The position numbers were made by a program, and so were the translations under genes. The notes under the pieces were generated by a model. The model worked only from the letters and a program-made list of their open reading frames with translations. It was not told the DNA's origin and did not search any database. From positions 1 through 38,890 of IMG/VR virus record IMGVR_UViG_3300042465_002416: a stretch of 38,890 bases of DNA. One strand, given 5' to 3'. This DNA is from a virus. Shown piece after piece: positions 9,381 to 18,521 of the stretch (position 1 is its first letter; each line of letters starts with the position of its first letter).

Positions 9381-9416
9381 CAACAGCAATTCATCCAAAA
9401 GGAAAAATTGCTGTTG
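9381..9416 (+). repeat. 11-bp perfect inverted repeat abutting the gp32 -35 box
   Basis: CAACAGCAATT (9381-9391) and AATTGCTGTTG (9406-9416) are exact reverse complements around a 14-base loop. The right arm ends inside the -35 TTGACA (9414-9419). It may be a terminator-like hairpin for upstream transcripts (no T-tract follows) or an operator. Confidence 0.7.
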
Positions 9417-9443
9417 ACATAGCACTTAATAGAGTGTTATAAT
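9414..9443 (+). promoter_or_regulatory. Sigma70-type promoter for gp32
   Basis: TTGACA (9414-9419), 18-base spacer, TATAAT (9438-9443): both hexamers are consensus. Predicted RNA start is near 9450, at the base of the hairpin 9448-9469. Confidence 0.8.
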
Positions 9444-9447
9444 TGTT

Positions 9448-9497
9448 CACAAGATGAGAGTATCTTGTGTTCCAGGCAACAAACTTTTTAACCCTGG
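9448..9497 (+). promoter_or_regulatory. Structured gp32 leader (5'-terminal hairpin plus CCAGG/CCTGG pairing)
   Basis: CACAAGAT (9448-9455) pairs perfectly with ATCTTGTG (9462-9469) around the 6-base loop GAGAGT, so the RNA would begin with a stem-loop. CCAGG (9472-9476) can pair with CCTGG (9493-9497). T4 gene 32 mRNA is translationally autoregulated through a leader pseudoknot and an unstructured A/U-rich ribosome site; this leader is a candidate for the same logic (inference). An AAGGAAAA site precedes the ATG. Confidence 0.55.
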
Positions 9498-9520
9498 CAT
9501 TTTTAATAAGGAAAAACATT

Positions 9521-10534
9521 ATGGCAACTTCACTAGCAGAAATCCGCGCTCGCTTACTAGAGCAAGACACACGTCAAAGCGGCAACAACAATCGCTCACA
9601 GGGCGACAACGGAATTTTTCCGTTCTGGAATATCCCAGAAAATTCAACCACAGTACTACGCTTTCTCCCAGATGGAGATGAGACAAATACTTTCCCATGG
9701 CGTGAACGTCAAATGATCCGACTAGAATTCGCAGGAGTTCTAGGTGGAGATGAAAATAAGAAAGTAACTGTAACAGTTCCTTGTATGGAAATGTGGAAAG
9801 AGACTTGTCCTATCCACGCAGAGATTCGTCCTTGGTTCAAGGATAAGAGTCTGGAAGATCTTGGTCGTAAATATTGGAAGAAAAAATCTTATGTGTTCCA
9901 GGGCTTTGTAGTAGATACAAAGCTACAAGAAGATGCACAACCGGAAAATCCAATCCGTCGTTTGATTATCAACCCAAGTATCTTTAACATTGTTAAGGGT
10001 GCATTGATGGATCCAGAAATGGATAATCTGTTTACAGACTACGAAAACGGCACAGACTTCCGTCTAACAAAGACTACAAAAGGGCAATATGCAGACTATA
10101 GCACAAGTAGCTTTGCACGTAAAGAGCGTGGTTTGAACGAAGTAGAACTGCAAGCTATTGCAGATCACGGCTTGTTTACTTTAAATGACTTTATGCCTAA
10201 AAAGCCAACTAAAGAAGAAGTTGACGTCATTTATGATATGTTCAAAGCCAGCGTTGACGGCGAATTGTATGATCCCAAGCGTTGGGGTCAGCATTTTAAA
10301 CCAGCAGGTGTAAACCTTGGTAACTTGGTGGCAGCATCAGATGTTGAAGCCGCAGAGTCAAGTTTCAAAGCACCAGCTCAGGCGGCTCGTCCTAGTCCTA
10401 TAGCGGCAGCAAAGCCAGCAGTTGTAGATGACGAAGACGACGCACCTTTTGAAGTTGCTGAAACAGCCGCACCAGAAGGCAAAAAGAATGTCAACGACAT
10501 TCTTGCGATGATTCGTAATCGTCAACAAAAGTAA
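9521..10534 (+). CDS. gp32: Single-stranded DNA-binding protein (gp32-like)
   Basis: 337 residues from ATG 9521, which has an AAGGAAAA ribosome site; the frame could begin at 9467 but that extension is leader sequence. It coats ssDNA in replication, recombination and repair. Visible: an N-terminal cooperativity tail with Arg/Lys (SLAEIRARLLEQD), OB-fold strands (STTVLRFLPDGD, FPWRERQMIRLEF), zinc ligands C88, C96 and H99 in PCMEMWKETCPIH, and a C-terminal acidic stretch VVDDEDDAPFEV used by gp32 for partner proteins. After that stretch a basic NDILAMIRNRQQK tail ends the protein. Flanked by a strong promoter with structured leader and a GC-rich terminator hairpin, so it can be expressed alone. 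Confidence 0.93.
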   Translation: MATSLAEIRARLLEQDTRQSGNNNRSQGDNGIFPFWNIPENSTTVLRFLPDGDETNTFPWRERQMIRLEFAGVLGGDENKKVTVTVPCMEMWKETCPIHAEIRPWFKDKSLEDLGRKYWKKKSYVFQGFVVDTKLQEDAQPENPIRRLIINPSIFNIVKGALMDPEMDNLFTDYENGTDFRLTKTTKGQYADYSTSSFARKERGLNEVELQAIADHGLFTLNDFMPKKPTKEEVDVIYDMFKASVDGELYDPKRWGQHFKPAGVNLGNLVAASDVEAAESSFKAPAQAARPSPIAAAKPAVVDDEDDAPFEVAETAAPEGKKNVNDILAMIRNRQQK

Positions 10535-13214: not shown

Positions 13215-13243
13215 TTGACACAAATTGGATCCTTTGCTATAAT
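13215..13243 (+). promoter_or_regulatory. Consensus sigma70 promoter, copy 1 of a duplicated element
   Basis: TTGACA (13215-13220), 17-base spacer, TATAAT (13238-13243) with an extended -10 TGC. The preceding uvsY stop codon touches the -35 box. TTAATTGACACAAATTGG and GCTATAATACATACATAGA are identical to copy 2 at 13496. Confidence 0.85.
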
Positions 13244-13274
13244 ACATACATAGAGAAACAAAAAGGAGTCCAAA

Positions 13275-13499
13275 ATGGAACTAGCAATCGGAACTAAAAT
13301 TGTTTATACAAGTGCCGCAGGTACCCGTAATGCAGAAGTAGTTGGTATCAAAATTACCCCTACAGCAAAGCCTGGATTTCTTAATACTTTTGTTACACTT
13401 TTAATACCCGTACAAACAGGTGTTAAATTTGAGAATAAAATTCAAATCTGTGCTGACAATGCCAGCTTAAAAATGTTCAAAGTAGCAGTCATTAATTGA
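13275..13499 (+). CDS. Unknown 74-residue protein with its own strong promoter
   Basis: 74 residues, predicted mainly beta strands (TKIVYTSAAG, NAEVVGIKIT, FVTLLIPVQTG, KIQICAD, LKMFKVAVI), suggesting a small SH3-like or OB-like barrel. There is a strong AAAAAGGAG ribosome site 7-8 bases before ATG and a consensus promoter immediately upstream, with another promoter directly after its stop, so it is a single-gene transcription unit. No family recognised. Confidence 0.65.
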   Translation: MELAIGTKIVYTSAAGTRNAEVVGIKITPTAKPGFLNTFVTLLIPVQTGVKFENKIQICADNASLKMFKVAVIN

Positions 13500-13524
13500 C
13501 ACAAATTGGTTTCAGTGCTATAAT
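13496..13524 (+). promoter_or_regulatory. Consensus sigma70 promoter, copy 2 of a duplicated element
   Basis: TTGACA (13496-13501), 17-base spacer, TATAAT (13519-13524), extended -10 TGC. Nearly identical to the promoter 281 bases upstream except for six central spacer bases (GTTTCA-type versus ATCCTT-type). Drives the AAA+ gene at 13558. Confidence 0.85.
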
Positions 13525-13557
13525 ACATACATAGATTAACAAAACAGGAGTTTATAA

Positions 13558-14640: not shown

Positions 14641-14674
14641 CAATGCCTAGTTAATTGATGTTAACTAGGCATTG
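14641..14674 (+). repeat. 14-bp perfect palindrome embracing a -35 box
   Basis: CAATGCCTAGTTAA (14641-14654) and TTAACTAGGCATTG (14661-14674) are exact reverse complements. The 6-base loop TTGATG is itself the -35 hexamer of the following promoter and the right arm is its spacer. No T-tract follows, so an operator or a bifunctional cruciform/hairpin is more likely than a simple terminator. Confidence 0.8.
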
Positions 14675-14683
14675 TGCTATAAT
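14655..14683 (+). promoter_or_regulatory. Sigma70-type promoter for the S8 protease gene
   Basis: TTGATG (14655-14660), 17-base spacer, TATAAT (14678-14683) with extended -10 TGC. Predicted RNA start is near 14690, 22 bases before the ATG at 14712. Confidence 0.75.
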
Positions 14684-14711
14684 AACTTTTAAAACAACAA
14701 AGGGAATTCAA

Positions 14712-16799
14712 ATGAAATTCAAACCCACTCTCGTAGCAGTAGCAGTTTTGACATTGGCTGGAAGTGTGCAGGCTCAAACTCCTGCTCCACAGACTTATCT
14801 ATCTCCAACTGGAAAACGTTATGAAAGCATTGAACAATATCAGATTCAAACTGTATTAAACAGAGTTGGTGCCCCAGAAGCGTGGTCGCGTGGCTATACA
14901 GGTAAAGGAGTTAGCATAGCAATCATCGATAACGGATTTGACTTGGGAACATACGATTTAAAAGGGGCGGTTGGTAGCTATAAAAACTTTTATGTAGGTT
15001 CTATTAGTGCTGCCAACACTGGTTGGGGCGAGCATGGTACGGCAATGTCAAGTATTGCCGCAGGCAGATATGGTGGTGACGTAGGTACAGTAGGTGTTGC
15101 ATATGATGCGACCTTGCTACTTGCACAGGCAGGTCAGGGCGGCAGGATGCCTCAAATTGATGATGCCGCAGTTATTCGAGCATTAAACTGGGCTGGAGAA
15201 AATAAAGCAGTTGCAGTTAATATGAGCTTTAGTTCTGCCTTTAATGTAGATTACGTTAAAGGTACTAAACGGATTGGCAATACTGATTTTTATCAAGGTA
15301 GCGCAACATCTAGTGCGATGTATGGAAAAGTAAACACATTAAAAACATATTTTACATCAACTAATACAACTAGTGTTATTGTAGCCGCCGCTGGTAATCA
15401 AGGACTAGCGTATTCGGGCTATCCGGGTGCTTTTGCCACTGCTACAAATGACAAAGGTGAATTGTTGTTTGGTGGTCGTTGGTTGATTGTTGGTGCAGTT
15501 GACGCCAACAACAATATTGCTTCTTATAGTAATCGTGCAGGTAGTATCTGTACTAACGTGGTTGCAGGTGCATGTAAAGATCTATATAGTGTGAAAGATT
15601 TTTATGTTGTTGCTCCGGGAGGATCTTCACTAAAAGGTGACTTTGTCGCAGTAGCATATGATAAAAGCAAAGCGGCAGAAACTCTTGCCGGCGGTCTTGG
15701 TTCTGGTACAAGTCAAGCAACAGCGATTGTAACCGGCGGCATTGCAATTATTAAGCAAGCATGGCCACAGCTTAGTGCCGCACAGATTGTCCAGTTGGTT
15801 AAAACTACTGCCACTGACTTGGGTGCTAAAGGTGTAGATGAAGTTTATGGTTGGGGTATGGTTAATTTTGATAAAGCTACTCAGCCGCAGGGTTTGTTGA
15901 AGATTGCTAACTTTAAAGGATATGCATCTGCAACTCCGTTGTCATCCACAGGTGTTGCGTCAAGCGGTAGTGCTAGTCTTAAAACGAGTAGTGTGCTGAA
16001 AAATGTACAAGGCTTGGACAGTTATAATCGCAACTATACATTGGACATGACTCGGGTAGTTATTACTAATCCAGTGGCAACATATCGCAGTTCTAGTTCT
16101 TATTTGGCAATGAGTCCAGCAGGCTATAATGAAGTATCTACACCAGTAACTGAAAACTATAGCGTTAAGATGATGCAAAGTCAAACTGGTATTGCCAGTG
16201 AAGTTTCTTACAATGAACAAGGTGCTAGCTATAGTGTGCAGTTTGGTAGCATGACAGAGAAGTCGGGCTTCCTTGGTAACTATGGTACAGGTGCAATGGC
16301 ATTTGGTGATAGTTCTACTAGTTACTTACAACTTGGTACCGAACACAAGTTTGGTAGCGTAGCAGTATTTGGTAGTTACGGACTAGGTACTACTCGTGCA
16401 GGAAGTGTGCAAGACAGTATGATCCAACTTGGTAATCGTATTAGTAGTGACACATGGAGAATGGGTGTTGCTAAGAACAATGTCTTCCAAAATAAAGATG
16501 CTGTGAGCCTAAGTGTAGTTAGTCCTGTAAGTGTGCGAAATGGCTCGGCAACTGTTACAGGTGTAACTGGCTACGAGTTCACAGACAATGGTGATGGCGC
16601 AGATGCTCGGGCTATTGTTAGCACAGAGACTATCAACTTGCGAGCACAAGTTAAGCCCATGGATTTGGTATTAGGTTATACTGTAATTGGTAAAGGCTAC
16701 GACCGTGTAAACGTAAATGTTGCTAGACAGTTTAACGTAGGCGGTGTTGCAGGCAATACAGCTAACAGCATTGGTGTTATGGCAGTCAAGTCTTTCTAA
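14712..16799 (+). CDS. Exported subtilisin-like (S8) serine protease with barrel-like C-terminal domain
   Basis: 695 residues from ATG 14712 (AAAGGG ribosome site; an upstream in-frame ATG lies inside the promoter palindrome and is rejected). A signal peptide is clear: basic MKFK, hydrophobic core LVAVAVLTLAG, cleavage likely after SVQA (A21). The S8 domain (about 45-410) has the catalytic triad D73 (AIIDNGFD), H108 (GEHGTAMSS), S334 (GSGTSQAT) and oxyanion Asn N229 (AAAGNQG). After a Ser/Thr-rich linker (about 415-470) the last 220 residues are alternating beta strands ending in Phe (VMAVKSF), as in outer-membrane beta-barrels and autotransporters. It sits in a phage recombination cluster with its own promoter. 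Known autotransporter proteases are bacterial surface proteins; here a role at the host envelope or against competitors is inference. Confidence 0.88.
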   Translation: MKFKPTLVAVAVLTLAGSVQAQTPAPQTYLSPTGKRYESIEQYQIQTVLNRVGAPEAWSRGYTGKGVSIAIIDNGFDLGTYDLKGAVGSYKNFYVGSISAANTGWGEHGTAMSSIAAGRYGGDVGTVGVAYDATLLLAQAGQGGRMPQIDDAAVIRALNWAGENKAVAVNMSFSSAFNVDYVKGTKRIGNTDFYQGSATSSAMYGKVNTLKTYFTSTNTTSVIVAAAGNQGLAYSGYPGAFATATNDKGELLFGGRWLIVGAVDANNNIASYSNRAGSICTNVVAGACKDLYSVKDFYVVAPGGSSLKGDFVAVAYDKSKAAETLAGGLGSGTSQATAIVTGGIAIIKQAWPQLSAAQIVQLVKTTATDLGAKGVDEVYGWGMVNFDKATQPQGLLKIANFKGYASATPLSSTGVASSGSASLKTSSVLKNVQGLDSYNRNYTLDMTRVVITNPVATYRSSSSYLAMSPAGYNEVSTPVTENYSVKMMQSQTGIASEVSYNEQGASYSVQFGSMTEKSGFLGNYGTGAMAFGDSSTSYLQLGTEHKFGSVAVFGSYGLGTTRAGSVQDSMIQLGNRISSDTWRMGVAKNNVFQNKDAVSLSVVSPVSVRNGSATVTGVTGYEFTDNGDGADARAIVSTETINLRAQVKPMDLVLGYTVIGKGYDRVNVNVARQFNVGGVAGNTANSIGVMAVKSF

Positions 16800-16828
16800 T
16801 TGACAGCAATTAATTTTAATGTTATAAT
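16800..16828 (+). promoter_or_regulatory. Consensus sigma70 promoter for the ParB-fold gene
   Basis: TTGACA (16800-16805), 17-base spacer, TATAAT (16823-16828): perfect consensus, starting one base after the protease stop codon. Predicted RNA start is near 16835. Confidence 0.85.
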
Positions 16829-16832
16829 TACT

Positions 16833-16860
16833 GCATAGTGTAGAATAAGCTACGCTATGC
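16833..16860 (+). promoter_or_regulatory. 11-bp stem-loop at the 5' end of the predicted RNA
   Basis: GCATAGTGTAG (16833-16843) pairs with CTACGCTATGC (16850-16860) with one G-U pair and the 6-base loop AATAAG. Because transcription should start near 16835, the RNA would begin with this hairpin, as in the gp32 leader. Confidence 0.65.
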
Positions 16861-16866
16861 TTTATA

Positions 16867-16906
16867 GGTCGAGAATGACCGCAACCCTGGGCGAGTTTGC
16901 CCGCAA
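16867..16906 (+). repeat. Two tandem leader hairpins related by a compensatory change
   Basis: GGTC-GAGAAT-GACC (16867-16880) and GGGC-GAGTTT-GCCC (16889-16902) are each followed by GCAA. The 18-base units differ by a T to G change in the left arm matched by A to C in the right arm, preserving the pair, plus two loop changes. The ribosome site AAAAAGGA and the ATG at 16922 follow immediately. Confidence 0.65.
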
Positions 16907-16921
16907 AAAGGAAATTTACTT

Positions 16922-18067
16922 ATGACAACAATTACCCACGCTCAAACTATTAACGGGCGTTATCTAAAATCTACCAGCCATTTCGTTTCGTTACAACAAC
17001 GTCTTGCAGATGCGCTGAAATCTTCTCCAGTATTCGTAAACATGCTAACTGCAATGGTAGACGAGTACAAACGTCGACATGCCAACTGGGCAAAGTTTTC
17101 CGACATGAAACTTTGTGAAGCAATTCAAGTTCCGATGGACAAAATCCTAATTGATACTACAATGCAACGTAGTTTGAATCTCCGTCACGTCTTGAATATT
17201 CTACAGAACTTTAAAAGTAGTATGGTGATGGCAATTCAAGTGTATGTAGACGAAAACAAACCTGGTTATTATATTGCATGGGAGGGTCAACATACTGCTA
17301 TTGCTTTGCATATTATTCTAACAAAAGTATTTGGCGAGCAGACAGCTAACGCTATGATCCCAGTTGTGATTTACAATGTCAAACAGAAATTAGAAATTCG
17401 TCGTAACTTTATTTTGCTTAATGGCGATGCCAAAGAAGAATTAGACTTTATTGACAAGTATATCCAAATGGTATTTGGTGTTAAGATTGATAAGGCGGAT
17501 GACCAAGAATGGATTGACACAGCCCTTAAGAATGACTACTTTGCCGCCGCAGGATTGTTTGCCACACATAGTAAGTTCGGAGACGAAGACCAACCAGGCG
17601 CATTTACTTTGTTAGCTGATACTCTTATGAGCAAGAGCTTGAAGACCCGCAAGCATCCAGAAGTTACTCGTATGTTTGCACAGTACTGGAGTTTCTTAAA
17701 TCAACAACGTCCTGTAGAACCCAAGGAAGCTAGGCAGTTGTATGAGTACTTTAATTTGTGTTATGAGCAAAAGATCGTAGTTGATGATGCATACTTGTTG
17801 GACTTAGTAGCTTTTACTAAAGCTAACTTCGGAGCAGACTTTGGACCCAATAGTCCATTCTGGGATAAAGTTAAAATGTCGTACGAATCGTGGTACTCCA
17901 AGGCTAATCCAGAATCATTTGCAGAGTTTGGTTTGAAAGGCTTTACTACAGAAATGCGTACAGGTATTCCGTTTTTAATTGCACAACTTAAAAAGAGTAC
18001 TAAATTAAAAGTGCCCGCATTTACTCCTAACAATGGCTTTACAGTTAACAAAAAGGACTTGTGGTAA
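16922..18067 (+). CDS. ParB/sulfiredoxin-fold domain protein
   Basis: 381 residues. Residues 69-130 carry the ParB N-terminal pattern: IQVPMDKILIDTTMQRSLNLRHV (position-of-Arg box), then VMAIQVYVDEN, and YIAWEGQHTAIAL replacing the usual dGqHRaaAl motif; the Arg of that motif is Thr here. The rest (about 140-381) is largely helical and not recognised, with an FILLNGDAKEELDFIDKYIQ segment common in phage ParB-like nucleases. Proteins of this fold act as DNA-binding or nuclease domains or as nucleotide-dependent enzymes; which applies is open. It is preceded by a perfect promoter and an elaborately structured leader, so expression is probably controlled after transcription starts. Confidence 0.7.
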   Translation: MTTITHAQTINGRYLKSTSHFVSLQQRLADALKSSPVFVNMLTAMVDEYKRRHANWAKFSDMKLCEAIQVPMDKILIDTTMQRSLNLRHVLNILQNFKSSMVMAIQVYVDENKPGYYIAWEGQHTAIALHIILTKVFGEQTANAMIPVVIYNVKQKLEIRRNFILLNGDAKEELDFIDKYIQMVFGVKIDKADDQEWIDTALKNDYFAAAGLFATHSKFGDEDQPGAFTLLADTLMSKSLKTRKHPEVTRMFAQYWSFLNQQRPVEPKEARQLYEYFNLCYEQKIVVDDAYLLDLVAFTKANFGADFGPNSPFWDKVKMSYESWYSKANPESFAEFGLKGFTTEMRTGIPFLIAQLKKSTKLKVPAFTPNNGFTVNKKDLW

Positions 18068-18074
18068 TATAACT

Positions 18075-18521
18075 ATGTTTAGAGACCCTAACAAAGACAA
18101 ACTTAAGAGCCAAAGTATTCTTAAGGAACAATATAAATTACAATGTAAATGCAGATTGGAAGATTGCGACAATGATCTTACAATTTTTGATGGTCCGGGT
18201 AGTGATGGTTTCTGCCGCGAACATCAACTTCAACTTACAGACTACGAAGGCGGTATGGGAAAAGCAGATCGCCCACATACATTTTACAGAGGTTGGCTCT
18301 GCGAGAAGTGTGGATACGATCCAAGAGAAGACAGTCAGTTTGATGATATAGAAGATCCATTTCATAAACTTCGTTGTATGCGAGGAGTAATGCACGGGGA
18401 TCATTTGGAACGCAAAAGTGACGGCGGCGCAGATACCGCAGAGAACATCCAAACTCTATGTTGTAGATGCCATATGATTAAAACATACAAAGAAAAAGAT
18501 TACTTAAAGGGCAATAAATGA
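18075..18521 (+). CDS. HNH endonuclease with extra zinc-binding cysteines
   Basis: 148 residues from ATG 18075 (an upstream in-frame start would overlap the ParB-like gene). The C-terminal 50 residues are an HNH nuclease: H110 in MHGDHLERKSDGG, N124 in TAENIQTL, H133 in CCRCH, with zinc-type pairs CEKC (76-79) and CCRC (129-132). A second cysteine group C24, C26 and C31 with CREH (47-50) lies near the N-terminus. Free-standing HNH genes in T4-like phages are often homing endonucleases, but a role in DNA processing beside uvsW is also possible. Start is 7 bases after the previous stop with no Shine-Dalgarno; a TTAACA-17-TATAAC pair lies directly upstream. Followed by a terminator. Confidence 0.78.
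   Translation: MFRDPNKDKLKSQSILKEQYKLQCKCRLEDCDNDLTIFDGPGSDGFCREHQLQLTDYEGGMGKADRPHTFYRGWLCEKCGYDPREDSQFDDIEDPFHKLRCMRGVMHGDHLERKSDGGADTAENIQTLCCRCHMIKTYKEKDYLKGNK

What the first reader, a model, noticed from the sequence alone, without database searches (positions are those of the whole stretch)
16800..16921. Leader with a 5'-terminal stem-loop and two tandem hairpins showing a compensatory change
Units GGTC-GAGAAT-GACC-GCAA and GGGC-GAGTTT-GCCC-GCAA differ at a U-A to G-C pair while keeping the stem and the GAG loop start. Together with the 11-bp hairpin at the RNA 5' end they fill most of the leader, up to the ribosome site. Paired substitution within one molecule is evidence that the RNA structure matters, for example as a repeated protein-binding site.
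Basis: partly seen in the sequence, partly recalled or inferred. Interest (0 to 1): 0.7.

Follow-up and report, generated by a model that had tools for sequence, protein, structure and literature searches.

The report
Tandem-hairpin leader RNA in jumbo phages
The start of one phage messenger RNA carries two small RNA hairpins just before the ribosome site that dozens of related giant phages keep even though their letters change, so they are very probably a control switch, not seen in the RNA family library searched, for a two-gene nuclease-like operon.

Summary
A perfect sigma70 promoter (16800-16828) is followed by a 5'-terminal hairpin (16833-16860), two GGNC-loop-GNCC hairpins (16867-16880, 16889-16902), a Shine-Dalgarno and the ATG at 16922. 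Among homologues of the 381-aa gene in uncultured phages, 34 of 63 distinct leaders carry the tandem hairpins (0 of 12,600 shuffles). The third pair occurs as U-A, C-G, A-U and G-C. Held-out leaders kept every scored pair, and one lineage lost the same pair on both strands. Sequence-only scans of IMG/VR found 28 places: 27 lie in records of this gene, and one is a chance hit inside an unrelated ORF. This is an RNA element dedicated to one gene, with no Rfam match. The gene encodes a probable DGQHR (ParB/sulfiredoxin-like) protein and is followed by an HNH endonuclease gene in all 84 loci examined. My best explanation is a translational operator: a protein, perhaps the DGQHR protein itself, binds both hairpins and blocks the ribosome. 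The structure is shown computationally; the binding protein and the direction of control are inferred. Distant homologues (one sister clade) lack the hairpins.

The parts
16800..16828 (+). sigma70-type promoter TTGACA-17-TATAAT, 12/12 match
   Evidence: a promoter-like match also precedes most homologous leaders
16833..16860 (+). 5'-terminal hairpin, 11 pairs (one G-U), loop AAUAAG, at the predicted transcription start
   Evidence: stems change with pairing kept, e.g. L001, L002, L026, L084
16867..16880 (+). hairpin H1, GGUC-GAGAAU-GACC
16881..16888 (+). linker GCAACCCU; both hairpins are followed by GC(N)AA-like sequence
   Evidence: spacing median 8, range 5-11
16889..16902 (+). hairpin H2, GGGC-GAGUUU-GCCC; its end is 19 nt before the ATG
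16908..16912 (+). Shine-Dalgarno AAGGA
   Evidence: sequence
16922..18067 (+). 381-aa protein, probable DGQHR-domain (DndB-like, ParB/sulfiredoxin-type) protein
   Evidence: motifs TMQR, EGQHT/DGQHT, FILLN conserved; TIGR03187 in homologues L090 2.7e-7 and L105 3.2e-5, below the curated cut-off
18033..18521 (+). HNH endonuclease ORF (start probably near 18075); adjacent to the 381-aa gene in all 84 loci

Best explanation
The leader is a conserved cis-acting RNA element of a phage operon encoding a DGQHR-type protein and an HNH endonuclease. Shown by sequence: a strong promoter makes an mRNA that starts with a hairpin in the window's clade, followed by two small hairpins with purine-rich loops and variable but always paired stems, the second ending about 18 nt before the start codon. 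Inferred: a protein, most simply a dimer, recognises the loop, the closing C-G pair and the GC-AA flank of both hairpins at once, and the bound complex blocks 30S loading at the adjacent Shine-Dalgarno, which is free in most predicted folds of the unbound RNA. Because the element occurs only in front of this operon, autogenous control (the DGQHR protein, or its complex with the HNH protein, shutting off its own mRNA once enough is made) is the most economical version. The 5' hairpin probably protects the RNA end from decay.
For: Covariation in built and held-out sets; paired loss of one base pair in L090-L093. The element is tied to one gene: one confident copy per phage record, including 111-365 kb records, 27 of 28 sequence-only hits in IMG/VR in records with this gene, and 2 of 694 ORF leaders, both this gene. 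Geometry fixed to the start codon: H1-H2 spacing 5-11 nt, H2 to ATG 12-23 nt, median 18. In L031 and L038 a small ORF sits between leader and gene, yet the hairpins stay at the first start codon of the operon. T4 gp43 offers a proven analogue: an operator with a hairpin about 40 nt upstream of its start codon plus sequence overlapping the ribosome site (PMC3014915). Tandem simple hairpins have been read as dimeric protein sites before (pan motif, PMC2864571).
Against: No binding protein, repression or transcript was measured. An 8-sequence sister clade of the protein and scattered members have no hairpin by my criterion, and 14 of 62 have one only, so the operon can live without it. DGQHR proteins are not known to me as RNA-binding. 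A positive role (ribosome standby, stability) would leave much of the same sequence evidence.
Confidence: 0.5

Rival explanations
1. The hairpins act without a dedicated protein, as a translation-enhancing or standby structure: they keep the ribosome site open, offer purine-rich SD-like loops to the 30S subunit, and with the 5' hairpin stabilise a highly expressed mRNA.
For: Shine-Dalgarno unpaired in most predicted folds; purine-rich loops; strong promoter; 5'-terminal hairpin in the window's clade.
Against: A mere spacer would not need C-G closing pairs, recurring AG loops and two copies, nor be confined to one gene among 694 leaders examined; other strong promoters in the same phages rarely have even a 5' hairpin.
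Confidence: 0.2
2. The sites are bound by a different trans-acting factor (another phage RNA-binding protein, a host CsrA-like regulator or a small RNA), not by the product of the operon.
For: Hairpins near the SD resemble CsrA/RsmA targets in layout; some loops are AGGAU or GGA. The element is lost in some members that keep the protein.
Against: Most loops, including both in the window, lack GGA. A global regulator should have further sites, but confident copies occur once per record.
Confidence: 0.2
3. The palindromes are DNA operators for a transcription repressor downstream of the promoter.
For: They lie just downstream of a strong promoter, and symmetric changes are also compatible with palindromic DNA sites.
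Against: The third position takes all four pairs yet always stays complementary, so it is paired rather than read; the spacer between arms varies from 3 to 7 nt; asymmetric loop letters are conserved; position is fixed relative to the ATG.
Confidence: 0.05
4. A transcription attenuator or antitermination (HK022 put-like) element.
For: Two hairpins near the 5' end of an operon transcript.
Against: No terminator was called in this leader on either strand; tight coupling to the start codon; confined to one operon.
Confidence: 0.05

Closest known systems
T4/RB69 gene 43 and gene 32 autogenous translational operators
   Same: RNA structure in the leader of an early phage mRNA, upstream of and adjoining the ribosome site (PMC3014915).
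   Different: gp43 uses one hairpin with a UAAC loop and gp32 a pseudoknot; here two 4-bp hairpins with RAG-type loops precede a DGQHR-HNH operon. Binding is untested.
pan RNA motif
   Same: Simple hairpin elements, mostly in tandem, upstream of an operon, read as a dimeric protein-binding site (PMC2864571).
   Different: pan has a stem with two bulged A residues and lies before pantothenate genes; no Rfam match here.
CsrA/RsmA binding hairpins
   Same: Tandem small hairpins, one next to the Shine-Dalgarno (from general knowledge).
   Different: GGA loop absent in most copies, including the window.
GmrSD type IV restriction (for the operon, not the RNA)
   Same: A ParB/sulfiredoxin-fold protein with a DGQQR motif partnered with an HNH protein (PMC4619093).
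   Different: The window's protein has EGQHT (DGQHT in most relatives); neither protein matches the DUF262 or DUF1524 models at the thresholds used; function unknown.

Membership tests
Structured cis-regulatory leader RNA | Conserved secondary structure with compensatory changes | tested here: met
Structured cis-regulatory leader RNA | Constant position in the 5' leader of homologous genes | tested here: met
Any Rfam 15 family | Covariance-model match above gathering score | tested here: not met
Autogenous translational operator (T4 gp43/gp32 type) | Specific RNA structure adjoining the ribosome site of the gene's own mRNA | tested here: met
Autogenous translational operator (T4 gp43/gp32 type) | Bound and repressed by the gene product | not testable with these tools
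   needs binding and reporter assays
CsrA/RsmA target | GGA in hairpin loops | tested here: not met
   window loops GAGAAU and GAGUUU
Intrinsic terminator/attenuator | GC-rich stem followed by a T run | tested here: not met
DGQHR domain (TIGR03187/PF14072), for the 381-aa protein | Score above the curated cut-off | tested here: not met
   best 30.6 bits against 58.85 in L090; DndB 19.9 against 29.1
DGQHR domain (TIGR03187/PF14072), for the 381-aa protein | QR pair, DGQHR pentapeptide, FxxxN motif | tested here: inconclusive
   Q82-R83 and F163-N167 invariant; pentapeptide is (D/E)GQHT, not DGQHR (motif list PMC4619093)
DGQHR domain (TIGR03187/PF14072), for the 381-aa protein | ParB/sulfiredoxin-like fold | not tested

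The most novel reading that the evidence does not exclude
A new phage RNA-operator family in which a DGQHR (ParB/sulfiredoxin-like) protein is itself the RNA-binding repressor, binding two tandem hairpins to limit synthesis of a phage-encoded DGQHR-HNH nuclease pair resembling GmrS/GmrD.
Probability: 0.25. Interest if true: 0.8.

Novelty: new member of a known kind. Interest (0 to 1): 0.62.

Why it matters
Few translational operators are documented in phages, and the classic ones come from T4. This one is found across a broad set of uncultured, partly jumbo-sized phages, has a compact 50-nt architecture that can be synthesised and tested, and points to a conserved two-gene nuclease-like operon that the phages seem to keep under tight control. 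If the DGQHR protein binds it, that would give this protein fold an RNA-binding role, new to my knowledge, and an orthogonal regulator for synthetic use.

Tried and rejected
Rfam search of the window and of a relative's leader: nothing relevant. Isolate phage search for the gene: none. GTDB genomes: 107 pattern hits, none a relative. One of the 28 sequence-only hits (L144) is a chance match inside a GC-rich ORF. MAFFT alone misaligned loops of different length, so I padded loops and spacers with N. That set had been chosen for pairing, so I repeated the count on leaders not used to build the model; they were aligned to the model, which leans towards its structure. Kissing between the 5' loop and the hairpin loops or SD was considered by eye and dropped: complementarity is absent in the window. 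Weak Pfam hits to T4 RegB (E 0.02-0.06) were below cut-off and not pursued.

Full report
What is in the window. The window is a 38,890-base virus record with tail sheath, terminase, helicase and ribonucleotide reductase genes. Its terminase is closest, at about 52% identity, to the jumbo phages PA5oct, MIJ3 and Paride. The finding lies between a subtilase gene (14655-16799) and a 381-aa gene (16922-18067). A perfect promoter, TTGACA-17-TATAAT, occupies 16800-16828. The expected transcript begins in or at the 11-pair hairpin 16833-16860, then come H1 (16867-16880), H2 (16889-16902), the Shine-Dalgarno and the ATG.

Relatives. Two searches of IMG/VR with the 381-aa protein and its alignment gave loci from many uncultured phages. 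Their leaders show the same plan: promoter, two GGNC-loop-GNCC hairpins, SD, ATG. A strict test (two four-pair stems, at least three G-C pairs each, both starting GG) is met by 34 of 63 distinct leaders and by 0 of 12,600 dinucleotide shuffles. Of 694 regions upstream of ORFs of 100 aa or more in three phage records, it is met by 2, both being this gene.

Covariation. In 24 leaders aligned by hairpin (loops and spacers padded with N), 4 of 8 pairs have changes on both sides, 16 cells against 2.1 in shuffles; sliding the partner by 1-3 columns destroys the signal. That set had been picked for pairing, so I built a model and counted on leaders it had not seen: 108 of 108 scored cells paired, 4 pairs with double changes, 12 cells against 2.6. 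The third pair of H1 is U-A, C-G, G-C or A-U. In L038 the closing pair of H2 is U-A. L090-L093 lost the third pair on both strands. The changes fall on several branches of the protein tree.

RNA or DNA. A palindromic DNA site could also change symmetrically. But a position that takes all four pairs is not being read, only paired. The arm spacing varies from 3 to 7 nt, the loops are asymmetric (RAGNNN, AAGNGAA, AAGAU, AGGAU), and the position is tied to the start codon (spacing 8, range 5-11; H2 to ATG 18, range 12-23). An RNA element is strongly favoured.

Specificity. The model finds one confident copy per record and a match at E up to 1 in 31 of 40 records, including records of 111 to 365 kb. 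Sequence-only pattern scans of IMG/VR gave 28 places: 27 lie in records that carry this gene, and one is a chance hit in an unrelated ORF. So the element serves one operon. In L031 and L038 a small ORF sits ahead of the gene, and the hairpins stay before that first ORF. Some distant homologues have no hairpin, notably an 8-sequence sister clade.

The 5' hairpin. In most of 29 leaders tested (chosen mostly for having one) the stretch between the -10 box and H1 folds well below shuffles, with very different stem sequences. It is not a general feature of strong promoters in these phages: 2 of 34 in the 111-kb record of L001, the other being the single-strand-binding-like gene. Several leaders have the tandem hairpins without it. 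I read it as an mRNA 5'-end stabiliser (inference).

The operon. The 381-aa protein has no Pfam or PHROG match itself at E 0.001, but relatives match the DGQHR domain TIGR03187 (2.7e-7 and 3.2e-5, below the curated cut-off) and DndB (4.4e-4). The QR pair and FxxxN motif are invariant, and the pentapeptide is (D/E)GQHT (motif definitions from PMC4619093). The next gene encodes an HNH endonuclease in all 84 loci examined, with GDH, N and C-H residues largely conserved. A ParB/sulfiredoxin-type protein with an HNH partner recalls GmrS/GmrD, but membership is not shown.

Mechanism. The best fit is a translational operator: a protein grips two hairpins at the upstream edge of the ribosome footprint and blocks initiation, most simply the operon's own product. 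T4 gp43, with a hairpin about 40 nt upstream of its start codon, is the working analogue (PMC3014915). Promoter match, hairpins, covariation and exclusivity are computed results; the binding protein, repression and autogeny are inferred. I give the RNA element itself about 0.97 and this mechanism about 0.5.

Noticed in passing
window 18033-18521 and relatives: An HNH endonuclease gene directly follows the DGQHR-like gene in all 84 loci examined, with or without the leader hairpins: a conserved two-gene, nuclease-like phage operon.
   Followed up: partly
window 9414-9524: The single-strand-binding (gp32-like) gene has a perfect promoter followed at once by a 5'-terminal hairpin CACAAGAT-GAGAGT-ATCTTGTG and a CCAGG/CCTGG pairing further down; worth testing as an operator like that of T4 gene 32.
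   Followed up: partly
window 13215-13260 and 13496-13540: Two near-identical promoter-leader units (TTGACACAAATTGG...GCTATAATACATACATAGA) precede two consecutive genes, a local duplication.
   Followed up: no
L089, about 2945-2990: H1 and H2 are identical (GGGCAAGATGCCCGCAAAAAA repeated), as if one unit had been copied in tandem; elsewhere the two stems differ in 36 of 37 leaders, perhaps to avoid cross-pairing.
   Followed up: no
record of L017 (G014), + strand 268560 and - strand 58806: Single GGCC-AAGGAT-GGCC and GGCC-AAGATT-GGCC hairpins lie 25-28 nt before start codons of other ORFs; could be extra sites or chance.
   Followed up: partly
L100 and L104, just before the start codon: The SD itself (GAGGAG) sits in the loop of a GACC/GGTC hairpin in a divergent clade, a possible variant of the control.
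   Followed up: no
record of L017 (G014) about 315730: A phasin-like 80-aa gene has a promoter with a 5' hairpin of similar loop type (AGCAATAGTGCT).
   Followed up: no
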